A DNA stretch of 64,000 nt from Guyanagaster necrorhizus (lineage: Eukaryota > Basidiomycota > Agaricomycetes > Agaricales > Physalacriaceae). Positions 22,971 to 64,000 of the stretch are shown in pieces. How positions within the stretch are numbered: the first letter of the stretch is position 1; each line of letters starts with the position of its first letter. Below the pieces are notes generated by a model. It worked only from the letters and a program-made list of their open reading frames with translations, was not told the origin of the DNA and did not search any database. Position numbers and translations under genes: made by a program. Where the stretch lies: NCBI RefSeq assembly GCF_019112545.1, contig NW_025064902.1, positions 24,399 to 88,398 on the forward strand, written 5' to 3'.

Positions 22971-25886
22971 ATGCATTCCGGTAAGTCACGCTGTCTGGCA
23001 AGACATTGGCGATCCTCTAACCCGTTCCGTGTAAGCAGACCAGCCGTCGAGTGTGGCCTTTCCCTTGTCTGAGTCGCCAGTCAAGGCCCAGCCGCAGCCA
23101 CGCCCTACACATCTACCCTTTCGCCGGATATCGCTACCAACTGCACCAACGTTAGGCTATAGGGAATCCGTAGTCAGTGTAGCGTCGTTCGACTCGCTAC
23201 CAGAAGACGGGTCATTACCGATACCTGCTATGATGCGCAACGTCAATTCTGGAAAGAGGCCCAATGGCCGGCCAACATCTACTGACGGACTGAGGAAGAG
23301 AAACAGGAGGAGCCTTCGACCTGTCCATGACGTATTGGAGCCGAAAAGGCGGAAGGTCATCCAGGAGTTTTACGAGACAGAACGCGCCTACGTTGATGGT
23401 CTCGAGCTGATTTATTCCGTGCGTGCCAAAATGTTTCTCGTTATTACCTTTCCTGACAGATCTTTAGCATTTCCTCACTCCCATCATTGCATCTCTCGAG
23501 ACTTCTCAGCCACTGCTCGACCGGTCCGGACTGACTTCTGTGTTCTCAAATTTCATTGACATTTGGAATTTTCATCGGTCTTTCTTCTCTGCGCTAACGT
23601 CCCATATTTTCCCGAGCTCGGGTTCCGCTTCCACCTCTTCTCTCCCCCTCTCCACTAACCAGCCACTTTCCCCAATCCTACTCTCTCACTTTCCATACCT
23701 GTCCCTATATACACCATTCGTTACCGCCTTTCCGACCACCATCTCTTCTATCACCAATCTCATCACCCCGCCTTCTGCAAACAGCTCTAATCCTCAGTAT
23801 AGTGCTTCTTTTGCAATCTTTCTGGCTACCCAAGAGTCAGATCCTCGTTGTGGTAGGCTAAAGCTAAGAGATTGGCTCTTGACCATAGTCCAACGTTGCC
23901 CGCGATATCTTCTCCTTTTAAAGGACTTGATTGAACGCACAACACCAGATGATCCAGAGCACGCGCAATTAATGGCGGTTCATACCCTTGTTTCAAAAAG
24001 TATGTCATTTCGCACTGTTTTTAACGTCCTTTGCTTATGTCCGACTGTCCTAGTTACCCAGTCCCTAAACTCCTCTCTCCACACCCATGCGCAAACCCTT
24101 TCCCTTCTTGCTTTACAAAAAACCACACCAAATCTTCCATTTCAGCTCATAAGTCCCGGCCGCACACTCCTGAAACGCGGAAGTCTCCTCCAGATCGAAC
24201 GGAGCGAGCACCCACGTGAACGTGAATTCCTCTTGTTTTCTGATTGTCTCATATGGCTCGCAAGTGAAGACTCGGAACGTGGATGGATGAAGACTGACTG
24301 GTCCATTCCCGGATGGGCGCCACAGGAGCCCATGGCTCCGTCAAGGCCGCTTATGAAACGGACAAGGAGCAAGAGTGAGGCGGAGCTGCCTGGTCTGCTT
24401 CGTTCCCGTATAAGCGGGTTCCCGATGAAGAGCCGTAGCATGATTCCGCCACCGACGAGAAAGTCACAGCTGTCTGGAGGCGGCGTCCGGCGGCAAGCGA
24501 GTGGCGGTGATGAGCGGTGGGTGTACAAGGCTCGGGCGGGGTTGGTAGACCTCGAAGTGGTGGTTACGTCGCCTCGGGAGGCTGGGGAGGAGAGGAGGTT
24601 TGAGGTTCTGAGCCCCGAGGGAAGTTTCGTGCTGTATGCGGACACGGAGGATGAGCGAAATGAGTGGTGTTCAACGATAAGACAGGCCAAGGCGCAACTT
24701 TTAATGTCATTGAATATCACGAATCCGAATTCGACGCTTACGGCTTCGTCATCAACGAACCACATACGGCTGTCGCTGCAGGCACTACCGTTTGCGCCTT
24801 CGGATCATTCTTCAAAGTCTCCAGGTAAAGGGAAGAAGAAGAATGTAAAGGAACGAAGGGGATGGGTGGAGCATTGGGTTCCGGCTATTTGGATACCAGA
24901 CGAGAAAGCAGAGGGATGTATGAGATGTGGCAGGTCCTTTGGATGGAGGCGACGAAGACACCATTGCAGAATATGCGGGCGATGCGTTTGTGCTACGTGT
25001 TCAGATAGAGTAAGTGTTTATCCGAGCCCACTTTCCATTTGTTCACATTTTCATACCTTAACAGACATTCTTCATAACGGATCCTAATTCCAAAGAAGAC
25101 ACAAGCAAGCCTGCTCGAGCCTGCAACGCATGTTATGAAACCGTGTTCCCGCTTCTCGATCGGCCTGACGAAGAGGAAAACAGCCACGTACCGTCAGAAA
25201 GTAGTAACAACACGATAACCTCCTTAACCAACTTCCCGTCTTGGCTCTCAATGCCATCGCTTCCTTTAAGCTCGACACCCGACGCGCTGATGGCCATCTA
25301 CAGGGACACGCCCAAACAGGACTACACGACCACCATCGTCGACGATGACGAGCTCTCTTGCGACTGCCTCCGCGTCAAGTCCTCCCCTTCGCGGCCGCGG
25401 AGCTACCACCAAATCCTAGAGGATCTCCAGGGCCACGATCATTCACGGTTCGATTTGACATCTCCCGTAGAGGAGGAAGGTACTATAGAGGAGGATTCCC
25501 TCGACACGGCATCTTTTACGTCGAGCAAGAGGCATACGGTGAATTTGACGGAGGAGCCTGTGCTGAGAAGGGAGGATACGGCAAGGAGGAATAAAAGGTT
25601 TTCATTACCTGCTGTGGCGTTGCAGACGACGAGTGTCACTACAAGGACAATGATTGGAGGCGGGGGCGGGGCGGTCGAGGGGAGTAAGTTGACGCATGTG
25701 CAGACGTCAACGAAGACACAAAGGTTCTCGTTGGTGCTTGGTGGGAAAGGGAGTCGGCTTTCGAACGGACAACGTAGTGAGTTTGTGGGCAAGTCGAGAG
25801 TGCAGGTGCAGGGTGATGAGAGGCTGGCAAAGGGTGTAGCTGCTGGGAAGTTGAGCGAACTCTTGGGGAAGAACATCTATGCGTAG
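22971..25886 (+). CDS. RhoGEF with DH, PH and FYVE domains
   Basis: Five exons: 22971-22980, 23039-23418, 23468-23999, 24054-25009, 25065-25886 (2700 nt, 899 aa). The first exon is 10 nt (MHS plus one base); without it no ATG is available before the conserved body. The DH (Dbl) domain begins near residue 105 with KVIQEFYETERAYVDGLELI and includes LRDWLLTIVQRCPRYLLLLKDLI, the typical nucleotide-exchange helix. A PH domain (~345-535: LLKRGSLLQIER, REFLLFSDCLIWL, DERNEWCSTIRQAK) follows. The FYVE finger (~590-655) has CMRC, the basic RRRRHHCRICG patch and a last pair CNAC. The set predicts activation of a Rho/Cdc42-type GTPase at PI3P-bearing endosomal membrane, as in FGD-type GEFs. The C-terminal ~250 residues are low complexity. 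Confidence 0.9.
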
Positions 25887-33338: not shown

Positions 33339-33563
33339 TTAGCTGAGGAGGAGGAAGATGGTGGGTCTGTGGGGGGTTTGGGGAATGCTTTGGTGATAGT
33401 GGATGTCTATCAAGTGTGTGATAAGAGGGAGAAGATATAAAAACAGGCTGACCAGAATGATTGTCTCAATCAGCAAGACAGTAATGATAATTGTGTATAG
33501 GAGTTCAGTTTGCATGGCTTGCTCAGCACCAATGATGGTTACTGAGAGAGAGTGGAGTGTCAA
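33339..33563 (-). CDS. Element A ORF1: small membrane protein upstream of gag
   Basis: 74 codons, MTLHSLSVTIIGAEQAMQTE then a long hydrophobic stretch (LLYTIIITVLLIETIILVSL) and LYLLPLITHLIDIHYHQSI. It begins just inside the PBS and stops 1 nt before the gag-like ATG at 33337. Sequence identity to ORF1 of elements B, C and D is not evident, but position and membrane character match. Function unknown. Confidence 0.45.
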   Translation of the reverse strand: MTLHSLSVTIIGAEQAMQTELLYTIIITVLLIETIILVSLFLYLLPLITHLIDIHYHQSIPQTPHRPTIFLLLS

Positions 33564-33575
33564 GCTTTAGACTAA
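33563..33575 (-). promoter_or_regulatory. Element A primer-binding site (self-priming type)
   Basis: TTAGTCTAAAGCT (minus) directly inside the 5' LTR. It pairs with the predicted RNA 5' end AGCTTTGGACTAA at 33750-33738 (12 Watson-Crick pairs plus one U-G). That start is 34 nt after the TATA-like TATTTAAG (33784-33777). Confidence 0.65.
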
Positions 33576-34336
33576 TTATCAGCAACTGACTTACAAACAA
33601 GATCAAATAACATCTAGCTGTCTTGTGTTTGGACAATCACCAATGAATGTGTAAGTCTTGGTTGCAGAGGATCAATGTATAGCTAAGCAACTAGTTTGGA
33701 GTGGAGAGTTCATGTGTAGATCAGAATAGATTAGACTTTAGTCCAAAGCTGAGGTTTTACTCTCTATCTGTCACTACTTAAATACTGTAGTTACTGTGTC
33801 TAATAATAGTTATATAGTTCATGTCTATCCTGTATCTATGCTGTAACCTGTAGGAGCCCTCACAATAGTCTTGCATCTTGTCAGTCAGTGTAGTGCCATG
33901 CTGGTGTGGTGTTGCTATGATGCATTAGTGGTATAGAAGTGATCCAGTGTGCTTGGCAATTGCTGGCATAGTTATGGGAAAGTGAAAAAGTTTTGAAATC
34001 TTAACAGCAGCACTTCACCACCTTTTGTCATGAATAATGTTTCTGTATCCAACTGCTTCAGAAACTATTCACAAGTTCTCATTTTTTCATGATGGAGGCT
34101 GTGACTGTCCTTGCTAAAAAACAAGGGCAATCATATCTTGGATCCCATTCTTGATGACTTTCCTGACTCTTCCACTCATATCTCTATTTCCACTGATCTG
34201 ACCTCAGCAGTCAATTTTGCATCACACAGTGTCTCTTATCTCATCTCTGTTGACACATAGATGCCCAAGAAACATCATATTTTCTCTATAGAACACTTTA
34301 AGTTGCTTATTAAGCAAGTAAAGTGGAGATATTAAC

Positions 34337-34868
34337 TGTTAAGCCCAAATTCCACATGACCAATAACACATGATAAATGACCACTACCTCACACTTTGGG
34401 TAAAATGATTAAGTCCACTGATGCATTGTTGGTGCTGTGTAGTCAAGACATTTGCAAGTTGCTTGAGATAAGATGGTGAAAAATAAACTTTAGCTTGAAG
34501 CTGGAGTTACTACAGTGAGAGCTACACTACTTATATACTAAATCATTATTGCTCTAAGAATATAACTGCCTAATTGTCCTTGCTGGTGCTGTATAGCATT
34601 TTGTCCAGCATTGCTAAGCTATCTACAAAAGAGTATTATCAGCTGTTGAGCTGTTACTGCTGTTACTGCTGTGCAATGATAAAAGAGATGCTTCTGTCAT
34701 TGTGCTGCTGTGAGACTCACAGCAGCATAGTAGAATCTGGGTGGTGCTGTTGACTAAACACTCTCATGGTTCTAAGTGCCCAGGTCTAGGCACTCTGACT
34801 AAGCAGAAATAGAGGTCAATCTCAAATAAATCAAGGAAAAAAAAAAGAAAATAGAAAAAATTGTAACA
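34337..34868 (-). repeat. Element B 3' LTR
   Basis: 532 bp, TGTTAAGC...TTGTAACA on the plus strand, pair of 42359-42890. Confidence 0.85.
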
Positions 34869-42344: not shown

Positions 42345-42357
42345 AGCTTCAAGCTAA
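42345..42357 (-). promoter_or_regulatory. Element B primer-binding site (self-priming type)
   Basis: TTAGCTTGAAGCT (minus), a perfect 13-nt complement of the predicted RNA start at 42524-42512, which lies 35 nt after the TATA box. Confidence 0.7.
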
Positions 42358-42358
42358 T

Positions 42359-42890
42359 TGTTAAGCCTAAATTTCATGTGACTAATAACACATGATAAAT
42401 AACCACTATTTCACACTTTAGGTAAAATGATCAAATCCACTGATGCATTGTTGGCACTGTGTAGTCAAGACATTTGCAAGTTGCTTGAGATAAGATGGTG
42501 AAAAATAAACTTTAGCTTGAAGCTGGAGTTACTACAGCAAGAGCTACACTACTTATATACTAAATCATTATTGCTCTAAGAATATAACTATCTAATTGTC
42601 CTTGCTGGTGCTGTATAGCATTTTGTCCAGCATTGCTAAGCTATCTACAAAAGAGTATTATCAGCTGTTGAGCTGTTACTGCTGTTACTGCTGTGCAATG
42701 ATAAAAGAGATGCTTCTGTCATTGTGCTGCTGTGAGACTCACAGCAGTGCAGTAGAACCTGGGCAGTGCTGCTGACTAAACACTCCTATGGTTCTAAGCA
42801 CCCAGGTCTAAGCACCCTGACTAAGCAGAAATAGAGATCAATTCTGAATAAATCAAGGAAAAAGAAAAGAAAATAGGAAAAATCATAACA
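42359..42890 (-). repeat. Element B 5' LTR
   Basis: 532 bp. Contains a TATATAAG box (42559-42552) and predicted RNA start AGCTTCAAGCTAA (42524-42512). Confidence 0.85.
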
Positions 42891-42896
42891 TTAACA

Positions 42897-43269: not shown

Positions 43270-43606
43270 TTACAGTGCTCAGACACTAGTTCTCTTGGAG
43301 TTGTTGATGAGACTGATATTTCTTGACAAGCAGAATACTGATCAACTCTGAGAGTATCATGCAGCAGTGGAGGAAGCAGACAGGAGGGGTGAGTTCAGTG
43401 AAGGACTCATCTCTGAACTTGCCTCTTCTGTTGGCTCTGGACCCAGTAATCAAGGACAGTTTGCCAGCAACAGTAAAACTCCAGGTGCCATCTATCTTAG
43501 ACCTGTCCAATGACTCTCTCATAGAAGACAGCAGAGACAGTGGGAATGATGACAACCTGACTAGGGTGCCTTTTGAGATGCCCAAAAGATATTACAAAGT
43601 GGAAGA
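43270..43606 (+). mobile_element. Remnant F, left part (gag fragment)
   Basis: Plus-strand gag-like reading (LLALDPVIKDSLPA, LSNDSLIEDSRDSGNDDN, EMPKRYYKVED) aligned with gag residues of elements C and D. It is interrupted after GAAGA by element C and continues at 52147. The left end is unclear and no 5' LTR is seen. Confidence 0.55.
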
Positions 43607-44132
43607 TGTTAAGCCCAAGTCTCATGTGACTATCAACACATGATAAACAGTTCGGTACCTCGCACTTTGGATATGTCTGACTGAGTTCACTGAGGTTAAT
43701 AGCAGAAGTGAATCAAGGCTCAAGTAGTAAGAGCTCAAGAGTAGTTTGGTGAAGATAAACTTTAGTTCGAGACTGGGGTGTTACATCGAGAACTAAACTA
43801 CTTAAATACTATTCTGTTATCGCATTATAAATAACTGTTCACAAAAGATATTGTCTGCTGTAGAGCTGTTTCCCCTACCATTGCCAGGCTCTCCACAAAA
43901 GCTGTTGTCTTGCTGCAGAGCTGTGGTCATGCACTGCAATTTGGGGACAAAAGGAGCATTGTCTCTCCCTTCACAGCACACAGCAGTGTAGTAGGAGAAT
44001 GACTGGTTGGGCTGCTGAGCTAAGCATTCCCACAGTCATAAACGCTGGCTAGGCACCCTAACTAAGCAAAGATAGGAGTCATTTCTGAGGGAAAAGAAAG
44101 AAAAATAGGAAGAAAATGGGAAAATCATAACA
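43607..44132 (-). repeat. Element C 3' LTR
   Basis: 526 bp. About 95% identical to the 5' LTR; the differences I compared are all transitions. Confidence 0.9.
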
Positions 44133-44388: not shown

Positions 44389-47300
44389 CTAGATGGCATC
44401 CTCCACATTCATGTTTTTCTCATTGACCCATTGATTAGATTCTGGACCGTAACCCTTCCAGCTGACTAGATAGTCAATGGTTGTTTTCATGCCTCTGCCT
44501 TGTGCTTTGACCTTTCGGGTTTTATGGTTTAGAACTTCATTGATTTCGTAATATTCTTCATCATCGATGAGTTCTGCTGGAGGTGGAGGTGGTCGTTCTT
44601 GGTTTGGGAAGGCAGGAGCCATGTATGGCATCAACAATGTTTCATTAAAAACATCATGAACTTTCCAAGTCGTTGGGAGCTGCAGTTTGTATGCGGATTT
44701 GCCAATCTTCTTGATTATTTTGAAGGGGCCTGTCCATTTGTCAGCCAGTTTTTGTTTTGGTCTGGGCAAATAAAGGTTTGTTGTATCCAATCAGACTTTG
44801 TCATTGGTTGAATATTCATGGCTGGCCCATCGATGCTTGTCATACTGCTTCTTCATTGTTGAAGCAGCTTTCTCGAGGGCTCTTTTCGTTTCTTCATGGA
44901 TCTTTGCCATTGTCGTTGCAAAGTCTGTTGATGCTGGTGTTGTTGTGTGGGCCCACCCTGTTTCTGCAACTGGTGGGTTCCATCTATAATTCACGAAGAA
45001 CAGTGTTTTACCCATTGTGGAGTGAATTCGGTTGTTATGCTGGAATGCTGTGAGTGCAAGCCATTCTGTCCAGTCATCCTGTCAGTAGCTGATGAAAAGT
45101 CACAAGTACTTTTCAATTTCTTGGTTGGCCTGTTCTGTTTGGCCATCTGTTTGTGGGTGGTATGCTGTAGAAGCATTTCTCTTGATATTTAGGAGTCGGT
45201 ACAAATTGTCCAAGAATTTGGAGATGAATTGTGGTCCTCTGTCTGAAATTACTACTTGAGGCATGCCATATTTTGCATAAACCTCATCTCGTAGTATTTT
45301 TGCCCACCCTTCAGATGTCAACTCTGTTGAACAGGCAATCAGGATGATTGCCTTCGAGAAGCAATCAACTATGATGATGATTGCATCATAGCTGTCACTC
45401 TTGGAAAGTCCGGTTATCATATCCACTGATATGTGGGTCCATGGTGAAGAAGGGATCTCGTTCAGGTGGAGTGGCACTGCTCTGAGTTGTGTTGAAGTCT
45501 TACCTCGTTGGCAAACTTCGCATGCTTTGACATATCAGGTGATATCATAACCCATCTTGGGCCACCAATATTCCCTCAAGACCAGTTCCTTGGTCTTAGC
45601 AACCCCGGGATGTCCAGCGGTCGCATGATCATAACATGTGGCGATAATATCACCACATAGTTTTTGATCCCTGAGGATGTAGATCCGTCCATCATAATGG
45701 ATCAATCCCTCTTCTTTCTTCAGCCCTCGCTCGTGGTTGAGTGATGGCACAATTCTTTGATCCCACCTGTGAGGATCCCTTGTGGCGCTCTTGATGCGTT
45801 TGTGCATCTCTTCTTCCGTTGGCATTATCATTGCCCGGAAGTGTTCTGGTCATAATAGTATGACTTCTTTGTTGTCATCTTCCCCTTGGTTATGGTCAGC
45901 TCTATGGCTGAGGAAGTCAGCCTTTTTGTTTGCTACTCCGGCCTTGTGGTGTAGCGTGTACTCATACTCAGATAGTTCCATCACCCAATGGGCTTGTCTG
46001 CGGTTAAGCTTTTGAGGTTGTTGGAAGTATCAGAGGTTTTGGTGATCGGTCCAGATCTCGAAAGTCTGGATGGCTCCAATGAGATAATGCCGCCATTCAG
46101 CAAGAGCGAGCATTATTGCTAGGAGTTCTTTGTTGTAGATTTCATAGTTGTGCTCAGTTACTGTGAGCACCTTTGACATAAAGGTGACTGGTCACCATTT
46201 ATTATTCTGTTCCTGTGATAGCACGGCTCCAATTGCGCCTTCACTGGAGTCTGCTTCCACCTGAAACTTTCCATTCTGGCTTGGAATAGCCAGGATTACA
46301 TCTTCAGCTAGTTGGCGTTTGAGGTCATTAAACGCGTCCTGTTGGGAAATTCCCCAACTCCATGGGGAATTTCTGGTTAATTGTGTCATTGGCCGAACTA
46401 TTTTACTGTAGTCCTGAATGAACCGTCGGTAGAAGTTTGTAAACCCCAAGAAGGATTGTAGTTCCTTCTTTTTGATTGGTTCTGGCCACTCGGTTACTCC
46501 TGCTATTTTGATGGAATCCATCTGAATGCTTCCTTCGCTGATGATGACTCCGAGGTACTCTGTCTCTAGTACCTCGAACTCACACTTCTCAGCCTTGAGG
46601 AAAAGTCGGTGTTTCCTCATCAAGGATAGCACTTGTCATACTATCCTTCGGTGTTCTTTCTTGGTTTTAGTCATAATGAGGATGTCATCCAAATAGATGG
46701 TGACTTTTCCGGTGGCAATGAGATCCTTGAAGATGTCATTCATCATCCACTGGAATGTGGCTGGTGAATTGGTGAGTCCAAAGAACATAACTGTTGGCTC
46801 AAACAAACTGTGGTTAGTCCAAAAAGTGGCTTTCCACTCATCACCTTCTTTGATGCGTACATTATTGTATCCCCATCGAACATCCAATTTGGTGTAGTAT
46901 TTTGCACCTCGAAGTTTATCCATTAATTCTGCAATTAAGAGAAGTGGGTAACGATTCTTGATCGTCATTTCATTCAGCTTCCGATAATCTTGTACTGGTC
47001 GCAGTTTCTCATCCTTCTTTTTAACAAAAAAGAAGGGTGATGCCATTGGCAATTTTGATGGTCAGATCCTTCCAGTGGATAAGTTCTCCTCCAAGAACTT
47101 ATCTAGTTCCTCTTGTTCGCTATTGCTAAGTGGGTAACACTTGCAATCTAGGTTGGCATTAGCATTAGGAGTTAATTCGATTGCATGGTCCCAGGGTTTG
47201 GTGTTGGGTAGTTCATCAAAATTTTCCTTCTCAAATAAATCCCGGTAGTCATGTGCCCATGTCGGTACCATCTGTTCAAATGTTTTTTCCTCCTTTTCAG

Positions 47301-48390
47301 CATTAGCTTTTGCTGCTAGGTTATTAGCATAGTGCACTGCTCAAATGCTGATGGCCCTTTGTAAGTCGACAGCGAGTATTGTTTCACCATCTTCCATTTT
47401 CTCATCCCATCGATCCTCGGAATCTTTGTCCGGTAGTTCAAATGGAATCTTCCGGCAGTGACATCAGGCAAAGATGATTCGTCTGGTTTTCCAATTGATT
47501 AAAGGGTTGTGTCTGATTAGCCAATCATGTCCCAGAAATACCTCCCTGGTTCCTAGATCAGTTACTGCCAAGTCGATTCGTTCTGAGTGGTCACCGATAG
47601 TGAGCCTGAGCTCTACATACTCAGTGATCGATCCAGCTTGATTCTTGGTCCCATCCACATTATAGACAGGAATCGGCGCTGCTGTTGCCTGAGTAGACAG
47701 TCGATGCTTGGCGACAAAAGCTTGATTGATGAAACTTCCCATGCAGCCACTGTCAATCAGGGCAGTGACTGCATGGGTAGATCGAGACGTTAATGTCTCG
47801 ATCTGTGCCTTGGTTATCAGATCTTGTCCAGAGGACTTGGTTTGTCGAATGAACTTTCGTGGTCCATGTAATTCATCAAGCCATTCCAAGGCCTGGCACC
47901 TTTCTGCTTTTTGCATCCCTGTGATCATGTCATCGATCACCTCTTTGACTCGGGTTTTGTGTACCCAATTTTTGAGTATGGCTGCTGCTGCTGCTTCTGT
48001 TTTTGCATCTTTAATCACCCACCAAGTCCATTCAGTGTCAAATGGCTTGAGCCAGGCTGTGGGGCTCGCTGCCCCTGTTCAGCCCGAAGGCAATTGAGTC
48101 TGTTTCATATCTTTAGTTTGATGAACTTTTAATGATGATGTACCTTTATTAGGGCTCTCTGCCCTTCTTTGGCCCTTCATCAGCGCTTGAGTTCTAGAAG
48201 TCGATTCCTTAGGCGATTCTGGTTTCTGAGTAACAGGGTTGGGTATATTTGAATGCATGCATAATTTAGACATAGGTGATGATACTATGGAAGATAAAAT
48301 GTCAGTCTGTCCAGCAGATTGTGGCCCGTTACTCTTGTTTTTGGCTGAGGCAATTGAATCGCCTATTGCTCAGCCTTGCCTTTTACCTCC
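44389..48390 (-). pseudogene. pol: Element C pol, interrupted by stops
   Basis: A single frame, -1 relative to gag, ends at TAG 44391-44389. Protease: AVTALIDSGCMGSFIN (DSG active site). [33 protein letters not shown] and the YLDD box. RNase H: VEADSSEGAIGAVLSQEQ. Integrase: HHCC zinc part (HATAGHPGVAKTKEL...CEVCQRGK), core with SVDMITGL, SDRGPQF and GQTEQANQEIE for the DDE triad. C-terminus: a chromodomain, YLVSWKGYGPESNQWV. Stops are TGA in place of CGA or TGG (for example the one before YVKACEVCQ). Not translatable as it stands, but the catalytic residues are intact. Confidence 0.88.
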
Positions 48391-51377
48391 TCGGGTTTCC
48401 CTTTGTCTTCGAGGTTTTTGTCTTCCTTCATTAATTCTGCAATCTGCACCTGAATCTCCTCTCTGGTGCACTTGTTCTTCTTTTGAGGGCAGTTTCATGC
48501 CATGTGGCCCTTCTGGCCACAATTGAAACACTTCCTCCCTTTCTTGAGGCGATCCACATCCATCGGCTGACCCGTTCCGGTATATGTCATGCCTGTACCG
48601 GTTTGCTTCATTCCGTAAGAAGTTAGAGTCAAGCCACCGGGCTTGGCAGATGTGGTCATACTGGGATTAGGGGGCCTCGGACCCTGTCCCTGTCCCTGGC
48701 TTCGATGGCCATAGGCCAGAGTGGTTGCTTCTGCCTTCTGCCATTGTCGTTCCTTGTACATTGTGATAATTCGGCTCTTCCACTCGTCATAGCCAATGGG
48801 TATGTCCCGGCTGATGTCTGAGATGGTTATGAGGTAATGAGATGGCAAGCCCATTTTCATATATTCGACCATTCGTCCAGTGTCAGCAACATCTTCCTGG
48901 ACCCCTGCGAGAGTGCCGAGTTGTTCTAATTCATCGAAGTAATCTGTGGCTGGCTTTCCAGCCATCTTGAATTCCTTCATCTTCTGTTTGTGGACTTCCT
49001 GGACTGCGGGATCTGTAAACTTGTCTCTGATCATTTGTTTGAAGACCGGCCATGCAGGGTATCGATGATGGTCCCTGGTAGTAGACCAGAAAGTGGGGGC
49101 GATTAGAACCCACGACACTTTGGCCTTATCTGCCATATGAGTGATGGCAAACATCACTTTATACATGTCGGCAAGGAAGTACAGGGCGAATACTTGAAAG
49201 TACTGGTCGCAGTCGACCAGGAAACGATTTATGTTGTTGGATGCTCCTTGGAAGAGGTGGGGTTCTGTGCAAAGAATTGGTTTGACTTGGAGAATTTAGG
49301 CGGCAGCATCGAGAGCAGGCATTGGGTTCGGGAGTCCACCATGGGGCAGCTGTGCCCACCCCTTTGGAGGTCCTGGGAATGAATGAAGAGATCCATCGTT
49401 GGCGATGAGGCTTCCTGGCTTTGGGACTTCCTTTTGCATGATCCTCCCATTCCTAATAGTCCAACCTTGAGCGAGCACCTCAGGGTCGTCTTCAGTTGGG
49501 GGAGGTGGTTCTAGTACTGGGGCCTCACTGCCCTCAGCCTCATCTGGAGGTGGCTGCCCAGCGAAGGGTCGCGGAAAGGGTGGCAGTCTCTATGATTTGG
49601 GATGATGCCAGGCTGCCTGTGGTCAGCTCCTGGCAAGCCAAGATGCTGTGCTGCAGACAGCTGACATAGCGAATGAGTACTGAGAAGATGCCATTTGGAT
49701 TGAAGGTGCCGTGTCTGCCATTCTGTGTGGCATTACACTCAGTGTCCACATTCTTGATGCCATTCTTCCGCTGTACTTCGGCTTGTATGGCAGTAACGGC
49801 TCCATCTGATAATGTGAATATCTTTGATTAAAGTTAAAAATGGCCTGCTCAGTGGCTGCATACTGTAGAATCTCCTCTTTTTCAATAAAGTCTGCAAAAG
49901 TATACCTTTGTCCTAAGGACAATCTTAACCAAAGATCGTCCTTCCATAACTTGGCTACCTGCTCTTGGTACAGCCAAGTGAACTCCTCCTCTCTCGCCTT
50001 GCATGCTTCCCATCGTAATTCTTCGTCTGTCATAGGTTTGAACTTCTCTGTCCAGCTAGAGAGCAGATCCCTGCCCTTCTGATGGGGGTCCACCTCCTCA
50101 GCCTCGTCGTCTGCGTTGGTTCCCTCCTCATCCTCGGGGAGGGAACTGACGAGCGGGGCATAAACTTCTGGCTGGGTCAGACTGGGGCTGCATACTGGGT
50201 CCAGCATCACTGGGTCCAGGGCAAGGAGCAGGCTATCACTCAGACTGCTCTGGCAGCTCCTCGATGCTTGTTGTTGCTCCTGGCACCATTGCTCTGTGAT
50301 ACCGGTGGAAGTTTCTGTAAAACTTTAGGTTGAGGAAAAGGGCCACGAAGGCCCCATCGAGGAACCTCTTGAGGTCGCCGGTGGGGTCAATACCCTTGTC
50401 GTCCCCCCCGATGGTGCCTCTCTCAGCTGAAATTCCATCTCCCCAGACTGGGATGTCCTCTGTCTCTGCAATGGTATCGGTCCTGTAAGATAACGGGTGG
50501 TTGTCATCAAGGTGGGACTGAGTCTCTTCCTCATGGTAGTCAGCCCAGGGGTCGGACTCACCAGTGGGAGTGGCAGGTTCCCTGAAAGGCGAGTCGGGCA
50601 TAGTGGTTCCAACAATGGTTGTGGTCCTACTACCTCCCTTGCCTCTTCTATGCTCCTCTGCTGCTCGTGCCTGGAGGTACCTCCCAAAGAGGGCGTTCTC
50701 CCTCGTAATCTCGTCGTCAATACATGCCTGGTCCTGCCTGTACTCGGAAAGGTTTCAGGCACATTGTACCAGGTTCTCTCTCGAGGGGCCTGGGACGACA
50801 GGGCTGGCTGGTTGTGTTCTGCTTGGTACCGCTCATATGCTTTCTGTTCTGCTAGTATTACCACCAACTGGGCGGTGCTCCAACCTGTCAGCCTCGGCAG
50901 CAGCAGCTCACCACCAGTGGTGCTCATTGCTGTCGTCATGCCAATAGTCGTCATCTCTGCTGTTAATGCTGTTGTGTCATGTAGATGGGGTATGTCGGGA
51001 CCCATAGTCCCTGGAACCACTGCTTCCTCAAGCCATCTGTGGGGCATCCAGAGAGTCTCGAGCATGGCACCCAAGGCTGGTGCTAGAGGTAGGAGTTGTT
51101 GGCCTGGTTGCTGTGATACTGTGCTGGAGGGATGGGAGAGGGGTGTCGGGTCTGGGTCATCGAAACCCTGCAGCTCAAGGGTTGTCAGGGTTTCGGACGA
51201 CTGCTGTTGGGGGTTGCAGGGGGTATATGTGCTGCTGATACTGCTCCTCTTCTTCTTCCCTAGCACGCCCTTGAGCCGAGCTCCCAGGGACACTTTCTGG
51301 GTTGGTTCCTTTAGCAGGTCGGAAAGACTGTCAGGCAGAGGCAGGGATGTTGTGGAGAGAGAGGTCTGGCGTGACAT
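48363..51377 (-). pseudogene. gag: Element C gag, 1004 codons, interrupted by stops
   Basis: One register from ATG 51377 (MSRQTSLSTTSLPLPDSLSD) to TAG 48365-48363. The N-terminal ~600 residues are Ser/Pro/Thr-rich with no recognised domain. The region around DEELRWEACKAREEEFTWLY is highly charged. The capsid-like part contains MYKVMFAITHMADKAKVSWV and KEFKMAGKPATDYFDELEQL. One CCHC knuckle, CFNCGQKGHMA.NC, has a TGA replacing the Arg codon (CGA in element D). Nonsense codons also occur at 50327-50325, 49625-49623 and others. The length equals that of element D exactly. Gag would form the particle around the element RNA. Confidence 0.8.
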
Positions 51378-51564
51378 TGCGGAGGATGGTTCGAATGCAT
51401 TGGAATTCGTGATAGTGCCTGATTGTCCAAGCTATGATCGATTGGCATCCACAGCACAGCTGTATGATCACCAGAAGACCAATCAGGATTCCTATAATAG
51501 ATGCCAAGAGTTCAAAGAACTTGTGGGTAAAGTTTGGGTTGGAAGGATCAAGGGCAGGGGGCAT
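51331..51564 (-). CDS. Element C ORF1: small membrane protein
   Basis: 77 codons starting 56 nt inside the LTR: MPPALDPSNPNFTHK, hydrophobic segment FFELLASIIGILIGLLVIIQ, a Cys cluster (LCCGCQ), AWTIRHYHEFQ and LRNVTPDLSLHN. The last part overlaps the start of gag (ATG at 51377) in another frame. In element D the same ORF runs four codons longer; here CGA has become TGA. One predicted membrane helix (~residues 16-37). No similarity to known gypsy proteins that I recognise; function unknown. Confidence 0.6.
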   Translation of the reverse strand: MPPALDPSNPNFTHKFFELLASIIGILIGLLVIIQLCCGCQSIIAWTIRHYHEFQCIRTILRNVTPDLSLHNIPASA

Positions 51565-51606
51565 TCAGTTTCTCAGCACAATTGGGCTTGAGAAAGGGAA
51601 CGAGAA

Positions 51607-51619
51607 AGTCTCAAACTAA
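51607..51619 (-). promoter_or_regulatory. Element C primer-binding site (self-priming type)
   Basis: TTAGTTTGAGACT one base inside the 5' LTR. It pairs with the predicted RNA 5' end (51788-51776) over 13 nt with one U-G pair. There is no TGG start, so it does not look like a site for a tRNA 3' end. Confidence 0.7.
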
Positions 51620-51620
51620 T

Positions 51621-52146
51621 TGTTAAGCCCAAGTCTCACATGACTATCAACATGTGATAAACAGTTCGGTACCTCGCACTTTGGGTATGTCCGACTGAGT
51701 TCACTGAGGTTAATAATGGAAGTGAATCAAGGCTCAAGTAGTAAGAGCTTGAGAGTAGTTTGGTGAAGATAAACTTTAGTTCGAGACTGGGGTGTTACAT
51801 CGAGAACTAAACTACTTAAATACTATTCTATTATCGCATTATAAATAACTGTTCACAAAAGATATTGTCTGCTGTAGAGCTGTTTCCCCTACCGTTGCCA
51901 GGCTCTCCACAAAAGCTGTTGTCTTGCTGCGGAGCTGTGATTGTGCACTGCAATTTGGGGACAAAAGGAGCATTGTCTCTCTCTTCACAGCACACAGCAG
52001 TGTAGTAGGAGAATGACTGGTTGGGCTGCTGAGCTAAGCATTCCCATGGTCATAAGCACTGGCTAGGTGCCCTGACTAAGCAAAGATAGGGGTCATTTCT
52101 GAGGAAAAAGAAAGAAAAATAGGAAGAAAATGGGAAAATCATAACA
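51621..52146 (-). repeat. Element C 5' LTR with promoter
   Basis: 526 bp. TATTTAAG at 51822-51815 and predicted RNA start AGTCTCGAACTAA at 51788-51776. Confidence 0.9.
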
Positions 52147-53055
52147 GAAGATGAGAAATTGCTTGAAGAAGAAATACAATGCAAAAAGGAGCAGGAGTTC
52201 ATAAGATTGTATCAGGAAAGAGTCATAGAGCTCCCTCAGAGTGTAGGCTGAAGAATAATGCTGCTAGAAGAGGAATATTTAACAGCACACTGTGACTGAG
52301 TAGGCCATCTTTCTCTACAATAAAGCCTGCTCTAAAGACCCTCTGGCTAAACTTCTGGAATATCACTTTCAGTTCAATATCTGACCAATGCCAAACATGC
52401 CACCCATCTCTCTGAAGCAGGCCATGTACTCAACACTGACTATCTGAATGGCCACTACAATCTCTACACACTACTGGTGACCACAGACCCTGCATGCCAA
52501 GAACCTGACCTGATACCTCTGGAGGCCAAAAGAAAACTGACTAATAGGAGGACAGCCCTCTGCCAATGAAGCCAGAACCAGCAATCAGCCCAAGAGAGAT
52601 GACTCTGAGACCATTAAACAAGGGTTCACAATCATTAATAAGAAGATTGTCAGAAAACCAGAAAGAGAAATCCCTGGAAGTCCAGTCACTTATGATGATT
52701 CTCTTCACTCCTTTTCTATCTCATATCAAAAGGTACCCCCTTTCAATGATTATCCAAACCTAATAGAGACACTTGCTCCTGACTCAGTCCTCATACAATG
52801 CAAACTGGATCTTATACAAAAGCCTCAGTCCTTTAAAGAGCAATTTGATGATATTGATCACTTTCTGATTGATTGTGAACAGTATTTTGAAGTATACTCC
52901 ACCTATCTATCTGCTAACATTTATCAGATCATCTTCACTGCATCCAGTCAACCAAAGGACTTAATAGTGTGTCTAAGAATACTGCCAGTCAGACTTATGT
53001 TAGCTATATAGATACTCATATACATGTGCATTCAAATATACTTGACTCTGTTCTC
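52147..53055 (+). mobile_element. Remnant F, middle part (gag)
   Basis: Resumes after element C: EKLLEEEIQCKKEQEFIRLY, later SFKEQFDDIDHFLIDCEQYF, equivalent to the capsid region of element D. Between ~52985 and 53055 it jumps from mid-gag to the gag/pol linker (CIQIYLT, cf. CMHSNIPDPV), implying an internal deletion. Many stops. Confidence 0.6.
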
Positions 53056-54467: not shown

Positions 54468-54991
54468 TGTTACAATTTTTCCTATTTTCTTTTTATTTCC
54501 TTTTCTTTTTTCCTCGGAAATGACCCCTATCTTGCTTAGTCAGGGTGCTTAGGCCAGCGCTTAGGACCATGGGAATGCTTAGCTCAGCAACCCAGTCAGT
54601 CCTTGTCATACCGTGCTGCTGTGTGCTGTGAAGGGAGAGACAATAACCTTTTTGTCCTCCAACTGTGGCGCAGCAGTAACAGCATACAGCAGGACAATAG
54701 CTTTTGTGGAGAGACTGGCAATGGCAGGGGAAACAGCACACAGCAGGACAACAGCTTTTGTGAATGTTTATTTATAGCATGACAGTATTTAAGTAGCTCA
54801 GTTCTCGCTGTAATACCCCAGTCTCGAACTAAAGTTTTACTTCACCATCTTATCTCGAGCTCCTGCTACTTGCAACGCCTTGACCTCACAATACTCTCAA
54901 CACATCAGTGAACTCAGTCAGACATACCCAAAGTGCGAGGTACTGAACTGTTTATCATGTGTTGATTGTCATATGGAATTTGGGCTTAACA
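54468..54991 (+). repeat. Element D 5' LTR with promoter
   Basis: 524 bp. TATTTAAG at 54786-54793 and predicted RNA start AGTCTCGAACTAA at 54820-54832, 34 nt apart. Confidence 0.85.
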
Positions 54992-54992
54992 A

Positions 54993-55005
54993 TTAGTTTG
55001 AGACT
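54993..55005 (+). promoter_or_regulatory. Element D primer-binding site (self-priming type)
   Basis: TTAGTTTGAGACT, complementary to 54820-54832 with one U-G pair. Confidence 0.7.
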
Positions 55006-58249: not shown

Positions 58250-60088
58250 GCGATTCGACTGCCTTGGCCAAGGAAACAAGTAACGGGTCACAATCTGCTG
58301 GGCAGACTAACATTTTATCCTCTTTAGCATCACCACCTATGACTAAATTATGCATGCATTCGAATATACCAGACCCTGTTACTCAAAAACCAGAATTGCC
58401 TAAGGAACTGACTTCTACAACTCAAGCGCCGACAAAGGGCCAAAGAGGGGCAGAGAGCCCCAAAGATGTGTCTTTATCAAAGATTCATCAAGCTAAAAAA
58501 ATAAAACAGACTCAATTGCCTTCAGGCCGAATGGAGGCAGAGGGCCCTGTAACATGGCTCAAACCATTCGATACTGAATGGACTTGGCAGACCATCAAGG
58601 ATGCCAAGGATGAAGAAGCGGCAAAGGCCATACTAAAAAACTGGGTACATAAGATCCGAGCCGAGGAGGTGATTGACGAAATGATCACCGGGATGAAAGC
58701 TGTGGAGCAGTGTCAAGCCCTGGAATGGTTGGATGAATTATGTGGACCATGGAAATTCATCTGACAAGCTAAACTCTCAGGGCATGACTTATTAACCAAG
58801 GCCCAGATCGAGACATTAACATCCCGATCAACCCATGCAGTCACCGTCTTAATTGACAGTGGCTGCACAGGGAGTAGCATCAACCGAGCTTTTGTCAACA
58901 AGTACAAATTACCCACTAGGGCGACAGCAGCCCCCATCCCTGTTTATAATGCAGATGGAACCAAGAACCAGGCTGGGTCGATTACTGAATATGTTGAGCT
59001 CAGACTCACTATCGGTGATCATTCGGAATGAATTGACCTAGCAGTAACCGACCTAGGGACTAAAGAAATATTCCTTAGACATGATTGGCTGATTAGACAT
59101 AATCCGCTAATCAATTGGAAGACCGGACACATCATCTTCACTCGATGCCACTGCCGGAAAATCCCATTTGAACTACTAGATGAAGATCCTGAGGACTGAT
59201 GGGATGAGGAAATGGAGGATGGTGAAATGATACTCACCATCGATATACAACAGGCCATAAGCATTTGAGCAATGCACCATGCTAATGACCTAGCAGCAAA
59301 AGCCAACACTGGAAAGGAGGAAAAAACATTTGAACAGATAGTATCCATATGGGCCCACGATTTTTGGGATTTATTTGAAAAGGAAAGTTTCGATGAACTA
59401 CCCGCTGCAAAACCTTGGGACCATGCAATCGAGTTAACTCCTAATGCCAATGCCAACCTAGATTGCAAGTGTTACCCACTTAGCAATAACGAACAACAGA
59501 AACTGGACAAGTTTTTAGAAGAAAACTTATCCAGCGGGAGGATCCAGCCATCAAAGTCACCAATAGTGTCACCTTTCTTCTTCATCAAAAAGAAGGATGG
59601 GAAACTTCGACCAGTACAGGATTATCGGAAGCTAAACGAGATGATGATAAAGAACTGTTATCCACTTCCCTTAATCGTGGAGTTAATGGACAAACTCCGA
59701 GGTGCCAAATACTATACCAAGCTGGATGTCCAATGGGGATATAACAATATATGCATCAAAGAAGGTGATGAATGGAAGACCACCTTCCGGACCAATTGTG
59801 GTCTATTCGAACCAATGGTGATGTTCTTCGGACTCACCAATTCACCTGCCACTTTCCAATGGATGATGAATGACATCTTCAAAGATCTCATCGCCACTGG
59901 AAAAGTAACGATTTACTTGGACGACATCCTCATCATGACCAAAACCAAGGAAGAACACTGATCGATAGTATGGCAAGTACTATCGCAAATGAGGAAACAC
60001 CGACTTTTCCTCAAAAGTGCGAATTCGAGGTGTTAGAAACAGAATACCTCGGAGTCATTATCAGTGAAGGAAGCATTCGAATGGACCC
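58223..60088 (+). pseudogene. pol: Element D pol, protease and RT, truncated by E
   Basis: Frame -1 relative to gag. Protease [51 protein letters not shown] codons at 58762-58764 and 59959-59961, among others. Ends inside the segment after EYLGVIISEGS where the LTR of E begins. Confidence 0.82.
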
Positions 60089-60580
60089 TGTTAGGAATGT
60101 GCCAATCGAGTGGGCTTGAGTGCACGCGTGGAGTCCGGTGGAGTGCGTGGGCGTTGATGAAGCTATTGGCAACATCACCCTTGAGTCGGAGCCCAAGGAT
60201 CTGGATGGACAGAACGGAGTTCTGTCAGAGAAGTGAACAGGAGTATCCTTCGGAGCAGAATCCGACGGATGAGATAGGGAGGAGTGAGTATGAAGTGTAG
60301 ATGGCTTATTCAAGTTGATATTCGAACTGAGTAGTTACGGTGATATACATGGCTTTATATACTAATGGTAGCTAATTCTGAGTCAGGTTCCATTGGGTTC
60401 TGGTGTGAATATTCGCTACCGAGTTTGGGGTCTAGGTATTACAATGTGAAATACAGATGTGAAATGATAATGGTGAAATGAAATTAGTAGGTAATGGGAA
60501 GCGGCCGGAGTCCAGTGGATAGCATGATAGAATTCGTGGTTGGTTGAGGTGACATGGAGGCCGGCGGCATGCGCGTAACA
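60089..60580 (-). repeat. Element E 3' LTR
   Basis: 492 bp. TATATAAAG at 60361-60353 and a candidate RNA start AGTTCGAATATCAA at 60328-60315, 33 nt apart. The matching PBS would be beside the 5' LTR, outside the window. Confidence 0.8.
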
Positions 60581-60703
60581 GTATCCCCCCCTTAGCGTTC
60601 TTGCCCTCAAGAGCGCTGATCCCGATGGCCGGTGGGGCCACATGGAGGATTGTTGGTGGCCGTGGGAGTTTTGTATCTTGATCTGAAACCACTATCATCG
60701 CCT

Positions 60704-62198: not shown

Positions 62199-64000
62199 TT
62201 AGGAATGGGATGTTTGAATGACTTTGGACAAGGGTCCTGGTTTGCCTGGGTATCGATGATGGAATTCTTCAATAAATTCATCGGCGGAGAACTCGGAGAC
62301 CGGTAACCAAGCAAATTCTTCGTTGGTACCTTCGTATCCTAGCCACTGGATTTTGTACAGCAGTGGGCAGCGGAACCGGCGGTCCAGTTTAGAGTCGAGG
62401 ATTTGGGCTATTTCGAAATGTTCTTCTCTGTCAACTTCGACTGGAGGCAGTGGTGGTTGGATTTGGTTGGGAATGGTGTTTTCTTCTATGGGTTCCAATT
62501 GTGACACATGGAAGACAGGGTGAATGGACCGGAGGTCTGGCGGAAGCCTCAGGGTAAAGGAGTGGGTACCAGGTTGGGCTATGATTTTGAAAGGACCAAG
62601 GTATTTCTCCGAGAATTTTCTGGTCGGGCGGGTGGTTTTGATATGTTTGGAGCTGAGGTAGACCTTGTCTTCCACTGTGAACGGAGGTGCCAGAATCCGG
62701 TGCTTGTCTGCTTGGGTCTTGTAGCGAGACTGGGCTTCAGAAATTTCATCCTTCAGTAATTGATGGAGTTTATCAAGGTTGACCGCGAAATCTTGGGCCT
62801 GAGCGGAGGCAATATCCCTTTCAGGGTGAACGGTGATGTTGGGGTGGTAACCCTTGTTAGTGAAGAATGGGGAAATTCCGGTGGACGCGTTAGGGGCATT
62901 ATTGTAGGCGAATTCAGCAATGGGTAAGAGGGTGTCCCAGTTGTCCTGCTGGTAGGAGCAGTAGATGCGGATGTATTGTTCCAGAGTTTGGTTTGCTTGT
63001 TCAGTTTGGCCGTCGGCCTCCAGATGATAACCAGAGGTAAGGTGGAGTTCCATGTCAAGGGCCATGGCTAAGGCACGAGTAAATTGGGAGATGAATTCGG
63101 AGCCGCAGTTGGATGTGATGTGACTGGGTACCCCATGTTTGGAGAATATGTGGAAAAGAAAAAGTTGGGCAAGCTCCATGGAGTTGATGGTGTCATGAGT
63201 GGGAATGAAGATGGCTTGCTTGCTAGCTCGGTCTATGACTACTAAGATGGCGGTGAATCCGTTGGAGTCTGGTAGTTGTTCAATAAAGTCCATGGAAATG
63301 GAATCCCATGGCCATTCGGGAACTGGCAGAGGTTTCAGTAACCCATAGGGGCGGTGTCTGGGTGCCTTGTTGCGCCCACAAACTGTGCAGGACTTAACAT
63401 AGTGTTGGACATATTCACACATCTTTGGCCAGGTGTAGTTCCGCCGGACTAGTTCTAATGTCCGGTTTTGACCAAAGTGACCTGCCAAGATGTGGTCATG
63501 ATTGTTCTGTAGTATACGGAGATGGAGATCGTCGGAGTCCGGGATGTGGATGCGGCCTTCGAAGTGAAGGATGTTGGATTCATCAATGGACCATTGAGAG
63601 GGAGAGGATTCGGAGGCGGCCTTGGCCTGGCGGAGGCCGTCGGAGGACATAGCATCAGAGGATTGTGCTTGTCTGATATCGGTGTGGAGTTTGTCGATAT
63701 CCATGATGGCACTAGCCTGTAGGGTGGGGCCTTCGAGATAGGTTGCTCAGAGTGACGCAGAGAGTTGTTCTTGAGTGAACACAGGTCAGAAATTGTGCAG
63801 GTTGATTTGGGCATATTGGCTATCCCCCTCTTTAGGGTAGACGTCCCATTGTCTAGTGAGTGCATCTGGTTTCCCACCAAGTTTTCCAGGGCGGAACTGG
63901 ATTACTAGGTTGAACTGGGATAGGTATTCGGACCAGCAGACCTGTCGGCGGGTTAGAATCTTAGTGGTGGCGAAGTATTCAAGGTTCTTGTGGTCTGTTA
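62199..64000 (-). pseudogene. pol: Element E pol: RNase H end, integrase, chromodomain
   Basis: The frame enters at the right edge with TDHKNLEYF (RNase H end), [15 protein letters not shown], then two TGA stops (63788-63786, 63749-63747) where Arg is expected. From 63704 it is open for 501 codons: HHCC zinc part, core starting SISMDFIEQL, GQTEQANQTLEQYIR, then YLGPFKIIAQPG and a chromodomain-like end (LLYKIQWLGYEG). The second catalytic Asp of the DDE triad is Asn (ITSNCGSEF instead of the usual S-D-R-G-S-E-F), with Arg to Cys beside it; both fit C to T / G to A change. Integrase should be dead. Confidence 0.85.

What the first reader, a model, noticed from the sequence alone, without database searches (positions are those of the whole stretch)
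51607..51788. Co-varying self-priming sites in four LTR elements
Just inside each 5' LTR there is no tRNA-like PBS; instead a 13-mer complements the predicted RNA 5' end. B: TTAGCTTGAAGCT with AGCTTCAAGCTAA (perfect). C and D: TTAGTTTGAGACT with AGTCTCGAACTAA. A: TTAGTCTAAAGCT with AGCTTTGGACTAA (each with one U-G). Both partners change together between elements. In every case the RNA start is 34-35 nt after a TATA-like box (C 51822, D 54786, B 42559, A 33784). Self-priming is established for Tf1 and proposed for the sushi group; here the covariation itself argues for it.
Basis: partly seen in the sequence, partly recalled or inferred. Interest (0 to 1): 0.8.

Follow-up and report, generated by a model that had tools for sequence, protein, structure and literature searches.

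The report
Self-priming retrotransposons in a mushroom genome
Many jumping genes in this honey-mushroom-like genome seem to start copying themselves with the first 13 letters of their own RNA instead of a borrowed transfer RNA, and the two matching stretches have changed together between families.

Summary
I tested it across the Armillaria-like host genome. In 83 elements both 13-mers were read from context, not from complementarity; 40 pair perfectly. At the four freely varying non-CpG positions 327 of 332 cells are Watson-Crick (permutation mean 207, maximum 242), and pairing stops sharply at both ends. RNAalifold, given no structure, draws 12 of the 13 pairs and two covarying hairpins between primer and PBS. 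None of 40 tRNAs examined (of 57 found) matches a PBS at its 3' end.

One correction: the two centre positions mostly derive from CpG facing CpG. Where both sides lost it, compensated and uncompensated copies are 10 to 11, so B's perfect centre and the single U-G pairs of A, C and D carry no weight. The covariation rests on positions 3, 4, 8 and 9.

Best reading: Tf1/sushi-type self-priming with a 13-nt primer, a known kind. The RNA start, RNase H cut and primer use are inferred, not shown.

The parts
51776..51788 (-). Element C: proposed self-primer, first 13 nt of the RNA (AGTCTCGAACTAA)
   Evidence: TATTTAAG 34 nt upstream
51607..51619 (-). Element C: PBS (TTAGTTTGAGACT), one base after the LTR end
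51815..51822 (-). Element C: TATA-like box TATTTAAG
   Evidence: same spacing in the other elements
51621..52146 (-). Element C: 5' LTR (TGTTATG...CTTAACA)
43607..44132 (-). Element C: 3' LTR; 27 substitutions to the 5' LTR, all transitions; GAAGA duplication at 43602-43606 and 52147-52151
51662..51697 (-). Element C: conserved leader hairpin (alignment columns 116-122 with 144-151)
   Evidence: position read off by eye, letters checked
51582..51589 (-). Element C: AAGCCCAA, 3' arm of a stem around the PBS; 5' arm TTGGGCTT at 51625-51632
   Evidence: 5 of 100 shuffles do as well; suggestive only
44392..49295 (-). Element C: zinc knuckle, protease, RT, RNase H, integrase, Tf2-1-like SH3 and chromodomain pieces, frame broken
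54820..54832 (+). Element D: proposed self-primer (AGTCTCGAACTAA)
54993..55005 (+). Element D: PBS (TTAGTTTGAGACT)
54468..54991 (+). Element D: 5' LTR, about 80% identical to those of C; no 3' LTR in the window
42512..42524 (-). Element B: proposed self-primer (AGCTTCAAGCTAA)
42345..42357 (-). Element B: PBS (TTAGCTTGAAGCT)
42359..42890 (-). Element B: 5' LTR; 3' LTR at 34337-34868; TTAAC duplication at 34332-34336 and 42891-42895
33738..33750 (-). Element A: proposed self-primer (AGCTTTGGACTAA)
33563..33575 (-). Element A: PBS (TTAGTCTAAAGCT); LTR end at 33577; no 3' LTR in the window

Best explanation
These are Ty3/gypsy-type chromodomain LTR retrotransposons whose RNA primes its own reverse transcription. 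The first 13 nt of the transcript fold back on the 13-nt PBS that lies one base after the 5' LTR, across a leader (about 150-165 nt in the main families) that holds covarying hairpins. By analogy with Tf1, the element's RNase H would cut after nt 13 and RT would extend the freed 3' end into the LTR end. Shown: anatomy, complementarity, its covariation outside CpG sites, its sharp edges, no tRNA 3'-end match in the tRNAs examined. Inferred: RNA start, cut and extension.
For: 40 of 83 context-read elements pair perfectly; 327 of 332 Watson-Crick cells at positions 3, 4, 8, 9 with no G-U. 57 doubly changed cells against 24.2 in shuffles; sliding the partner by 1-3 columns drops pairing from 94.2% to 15-51%. 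RNAalifold draws 12 of the 13 pairs from the alignment alone. R and PBS change 8/9, 11/10, 1/1 and 7/7 times on the tree at positions 3, 4, 8, 9, never in opposite ways in independent pairs. Pairing stops at once: 1 of 83 at -1, 5 of 83 at +14. R starts 33-35 nt after the TATA box in the pairs printed. 1,298 PBS-like LTR ends against 9 for the reversed pattern. Leader hairpins covary. Chromodomain and Tf2-1-like SH3 present.
Against: No RNA data. At CpG-derived centres compensation is 10 of 21, as chance gives. In 8 of 83 R position 13 is T with the PBS unchanged. In one search two of five measures do not favour pairing over shuffles (pairs with a change on both sides: 111 of 500 shuffles reach 6; further pair types: all 500 reach 11). 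With 1-4 supported independent pairs per position no sign test can reach 0.05, and 36 of 80 inner branches are weak. The stem around the PBS is absent in B and L079.
Confidence: 0.88

Rival explanations
1. The duplex is real RNA structure but serves packaging, dimerisation or translation control, and priming uses something else.
For: The covarying leader hairpins show that this RNA has structure beyond a primer duplex.
Against: One partner lies exactly at the PBS position one base after the LTR, the other at the predicted RNA 5' end, and the helix stops at both edges; no other primer was found among 40 of 57 tRNAs.
Confidence: 0.06
2. A tRNA, or an internal or half tRNA, primes at this PBS.
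For: Seven of 20 PBS types have an internal run of 11 nt (G-U allowed) to one tRNA (L117).
Against: No 3'-end match over 1 nt for 20 PBS types in 40 tRNAs; shuffled PBSs reach internal runs of 9-13 nt; no TGG at the PBS start. 17 of the 57 tRNA places were not examined.
Confidence: 0.02
3. The two 13-mers are an inverted repeat acting as DNA (protein binding, recombination or silencing), not as RNA.
For: The same sequence evidence fits a DNA palindrome in principle.
Against: The leader hairpins between the two 13-mers also covary with G-U pairs, and the positions are those of RNA start and PBS.
Confidence: 0.03
4. Apparent covariation is only descent plus CpG decay.
For: CpG decay imitates compensation at positions 6 and 7; 51 of 65 non-Watson-Crick cells lie there.
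Against: Positions 3, 4 and 9 change repeatedly and together on the tree. Within a primer family (defined by R letters only) the PBS is 99.2-99.8% identical outside CpG while its flanks diverge.
Confidence: 0.01

Closest known systems
Tf1 of Schizosaccharomyces pombe (Tf1/sushi group of Ty3/gypsy chromoviruses)
   Same: The transcript's first nucleotides are complementary to the PBS beside the 5' LTR; chromodomain integrase; structured leader (PMC7175516 and PMC10085805, passages read).
   Different: Tf1 pairs 11 nt and is cut between nt 11 and 12 (PMC7175516, passage); here the helix is 13 nt. Priming in Tf1 is experimental, here inferred.
Tj1, Tosmo1-3 and Tcry1 of other fission yeasts
   Same: Self-priming inferred from PBS complementarity to the RNA 5' end (PMC4600332 and PMC10085805, passages).
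   Different: Each argued from one or a few elements; here many variants of the pair in one genome. The full three-duplex leader is not established here.
Tcn1 of Cryptococcus neoformans and Tcn1-like elements
   Same: Basidiomycete element with proposed self-priming (PMC7175516, passage).
   Different: No sequence comparison was made here. For the spikemoss relative SM-Tcn1 no PBS was found (PMC2864245, passage).

Membership tests
Tf1/sushi self-priming chromoviruses | PBS complementary to the predicted RNA 5' end | tested here: met
   (sequence level)
Tf1/sushi self-priming chromoviruses | Chromodomain at the integrase C-terminus | tested here: met
   Element C: Chromo 30.8 bits against cut-off 25.1, SH3_Tf2-1 58.6 against 30
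Tf1/sushi self-priming chromoviruses | No tRNA-type PBS | tested here: met
   20 PBS types against 40 of 57 tRNAs
Tf1/sushi self-priming chromoviruses | Three-duplex ('pretzel') leader RNA | tested here: inconclusive
   A PBS-flanking stem in C, D, A, L059, L063, absent in B and L079 (11 of 22 representatives had enough sequence); different leader hairpins covary
Tf1/sushi self-priming chromoviruses | RNA starts at the primer and RNase H cuts at its 3' end | not testable with these tools
   no RNA or biochemical data
Tf1/sushi self-priming chromoviruses | Groups with Tf1/sushi in a pol tree | not tested
   no reference pol sequences were used
Ty3/gypsy LTR retrotransposon | Protease-RT-RNase H-integrase order, two LTRs, target duplication | tested here: met
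   Domain order in C; LTR pairs and 5-bp duplications in C and B. No 3' LTR found in the window for A or D

The most novel reading that the evidence does not exclude
In self-primed elements the PBS may be rewritten each cycle from the transcript's 5' end, because plus-strand synthesis would copy the attached 13-nt primer. Primer and PBS would then be one heritable 'primer allele' that changes in a single step, not by two compensating mutations, and that can appear on different LTR backgrounds. Consistent: no G-U in 332 cells at positions 3, 4, 8, 9, and different primer alleles on leaders about 90% alike, e.g. L156 and L166. Against the strict 13-nt form: on leaders 86-93% alike, the 10-nt flanks are also less alike when the primer differs (0.63 v 0.80, 0.77 v 0.93, 0.92 v 0.94, 0.61 v 0.79 for the four sides), as recombination or plain descent would give.
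Probability: 0.25. Interest if true: 0.6.

Novelty: new member of a known kind. Interest (0 to 1): 0.42.

Why it matters
In the passages read, self-priming outside Tf1 is argued from one or a few elements at a time. One genome with about 1,300 PBS-like LTR ends and at least seven non-CpG variants of the pair turns that argument into a statistical test of RNA pairing, predicts an RNA start and a 13-nt primer, and offers material for asking how primer and PBS stay matched. It also shows a trap: where CpG faces CpG in a helix, deamination of old copies imitates compensatory change.

Tried and rejected
A scan of viral contigs with element C's RT found no relative. Rfam gave nothing on window 51400-52200. 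B's perfect centre as covariation evidence was set aside, since compensated and uncompensated states are equal among CpG-derived centres; it is not disproved either, because both LTRs of B carry the CA state and its tree neighbour L049 has the same pair. A strict one-step 'PBS rewriting' was tested and not supported. Helices between the start of the leader and the LTR end, or between leader and post-PBS sequence, were mostly no better than shuffles in the representatives tried. The neighbouring element with an integrase at 62199-63704 showed no 13-bp self-primer among the top three helices of the stretch examined; its LTRs were not defined. Literature: a search for compensatory change found one paper, not on point, one for covariation found none, and one for strand-transfer terms listed 12 of 28, from which I opened nothing new. 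Lin & Levin 1997 (RNA) and Atwood-Moore 2006 are not held and were not read; a published covariation argument cannot be excluded.

Full report
SETTING. The window lies in a 53.3-Mb, 109-contig genome. A host gene in it (23540-25087, RhoGEF/FYVE) is 89% identical to an Armillaria gallica protein, 80% to one of A. mellea and 96% to an unnamed sequence, so the host is Armillaria or a near relative. The elements are Ty3/gypsy-type LTR retrotransposons. Element C carries, in order, zinc knuckle, protease, RT, RNase H, integrase zinc domain, integrase core, a Tf2-1-like SH3 domain and a chromodomain, with a broken frame.

OBSERVATION. Every 13-mer and TATA coordinate of the finding is right. C and B are complete insertions with 5-bp target duplications (GAAGA, TTAAC). 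A and D have no 3' LTR in the window. In all four, one base lies between LTR end (CTTAACA; CTGATA in A) and PBS.

SAMPLING BLIND TO COMPLEMENTARITY. Relatives were located by RT (150 scored of 2,026 candidates; 40 leader stretches fetched), by the gag fragment of A (14 stretches) and by an LTR end followed by TTAG-N7-CT (1,298 sites, 9 for the reversed control; 46 stretches fetched). R was read as the 13-mer starting AG 32-36 nt after a TATA-like box, the PBS as TTAG+9 after an LTR-end motif. Positions 1-2 and 10-13 are partly fixed by this rule and get no weight. Readable: 28 of 40 RT-located, 6 of 14 gag-located, 42 of 46 census, 4 of 4 window, 3 of 16 other loci, 83 in all. Of the 12 RT-located misses 10 contain withheld letters, one pairs perfectly but has a variant LTR end, and one has no PBS-like site. 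Five loci that repeat others were dropped before counting (one of them is still listed among the 16).

RESULT. 40 of 83 pair perfectly, 17 have one G-U, 26 have more defects. Positions 3, 4, 8 and 9 are Watson-Crick in 327 of 332 cells with no G-U; 2,000 permutations give mean 207, maximum 242. Position 3 shows CG and UA; position 4 UA, CG, GC and AU; position 8 AU and GC; position 9 GC and AU. The helix stops at once: 1 of 83 paired at -1, 5 of 83 at +14. On 33 distinct pairs 94.2% of cells pair against 86.0 (sd 0.8) in shuffles, with 57 doubly changed cells against 24.2, and sliding the partner by 1-3 columns gives 15-51%; two other measures do not exceed shuffles. RNAalifold draws 12 of the 13 pairs unprompted. 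Permutations ignore relatedness. On a tree of the leaders without the 13-mers, R and PBS change 8/9, 11/10, 1/1 and 7/7 times at positions 3, 4, 8 and 9, and independent pairs on supported branches (4, 4, 1, 4) never go opposite ways; at position 3 a mean of 0.6 of 4 pairs shows no PBS change. These are too few for a sign test to reach 0.05, and 36 of 80 inner branches are weak (the printout for the centre positions was cut).

THE CpG TRAP. In the commonest families the centre is CG on both sides, and CG faces CG. Deamination gives TG or CA on either side. Of 65 such copies 20 are CG/CG; of the 21 with one change on each side 10 are compensated and 11 not. The census part was chosen by PBS type, so these are not genome frequencies. 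Positions 6 and 7 hold 51 of the 65 non-Watson-Crick cells. The LTR pairs of C and B differ by transitions only (27 of 27 and 37 of 37 substitutions). So B's perfect centre and the single U-G of C and D cannot count as covariation. A's U-G is likewise a C-to-T state that its 88% relative L079 lacks, though L172 and L042 carry the same PBS with a matching R. B's state may still be inherited: both its LTRs carry it, and so does L049.

RESULTS AGAINST. In 8 of 83 R position 13 is T with the PBS unchanged, leaving 12 pairs at most. Two decayed copies (L177, L184) have a non-CpG mismatch at position 3. Eight of 14 gag-located stretches gave no readable pair; two of them (L083, L091) show a partial match elsewhere in the stretch.

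CONTROLS. Twenty PBS types against 40 of 57 tRNA matches: no 3'-end match beyond 1 nt; internal runs up to 11 nt, where shuffles reach 9-13. Within a primer family, defined by R letters alone, the PBS is 99.2-99.8% identical outside CpG, while the 10-nt flanks of the two 13-mers are 62-94% identical.

LEADER STRUCTURE. Two hairpins between primer and PBS covary: 89.0% of cells paired against 74.9 in shuffles, 77 doubly changed cells against 32.6, covariation score 0.464 against 0.242 shuffled and at most 0.187 slid. The structure comes from the same alignment, which favours it. An 8-bp stem flanks the PBS in C, D, L059 and L063 (TTGGGCTT/AAGCCCAA) and, in the same place with other letters, in A; it is missing in B and L079 (11 of 22 representatives had enough sequence). 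In C, D and A 5 to 8 of 100 shuffles do as well, so this part is only suggestive.

MECHANISM AND FILING. Tf1 pairs its first 11 nt with the PBS and is cut between nt 11 and 12 (PMC7175516, passage); self-priming is called a common feature of Tf1/sushi elements, and Tf1 needs a three-duplex leader (PMC10085805, passages). The elements here look as if they work like that, with 13 nt. Chromodomain and PBS features are met; clade position was not tested; RNA start and cleavage cannot be tested here. Self-priming was proposed before for a basidiomycete element, Tcn1 (PMC7175516, passage). Hence a new member of a known kind, with a large natural covariation set. The match might be kept up by copying the primer into the PBS, as tRNA-primed elements copy their tRNA (general knowledge, recalled); the strict 13-nt form of that idea was not supported.

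Noticed in passing
L059, L064, L067-L071, L073-L078, L098, L104, L106, L109: about 93 nt after the PBS start: In elements with PBS TTAGCTCGAAGCT a 12-mer downstream (such as CTTCGAGCTAAT) is complementary to the PBS plus the base before it, a possible competitor of the primer; not seen at 11 nt or more in A, B, C or D. It may be a coding coincidence.
   Followed up: no
L059, L064, L067, L070 and others: about 280-365 nt after the PBS start: A recurrent 11-12 nt inverted repeat GTCCTTCTTCC / GGARGAAGGAC in elements of the same primer family.
   Followed up: no
43607-44132 with 51621-52146; 34337-34868 with 42359-42890: Within each LTR pair all substitutions are transitions (27 of 27 in C, 37 of 37 in B), as cytosine deamination would give.
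   Followed up: partly
whole genome G000: The pattern TAACAATTAGN7CT occurs 1,298 times (9 for its reverse), a very large expansion of this type of element.
   Followed up: partly
62199-63704 and the adjoining L093: A second Ty3/gypsy element: integrase with Tf2-1-like SH3 but no Pfam chromodomain hit. No self-primer of this kind was among the top three helices of the stretch examined; its LTRs were not defined.
   Followed up: partly
59958-60581: Element D's pol pieces stop near 59958; 60076-60581 is a 95% repeat of a stretch to the right of the window (L093); no 3' LTR of D lies in the window.
   Followed up: no
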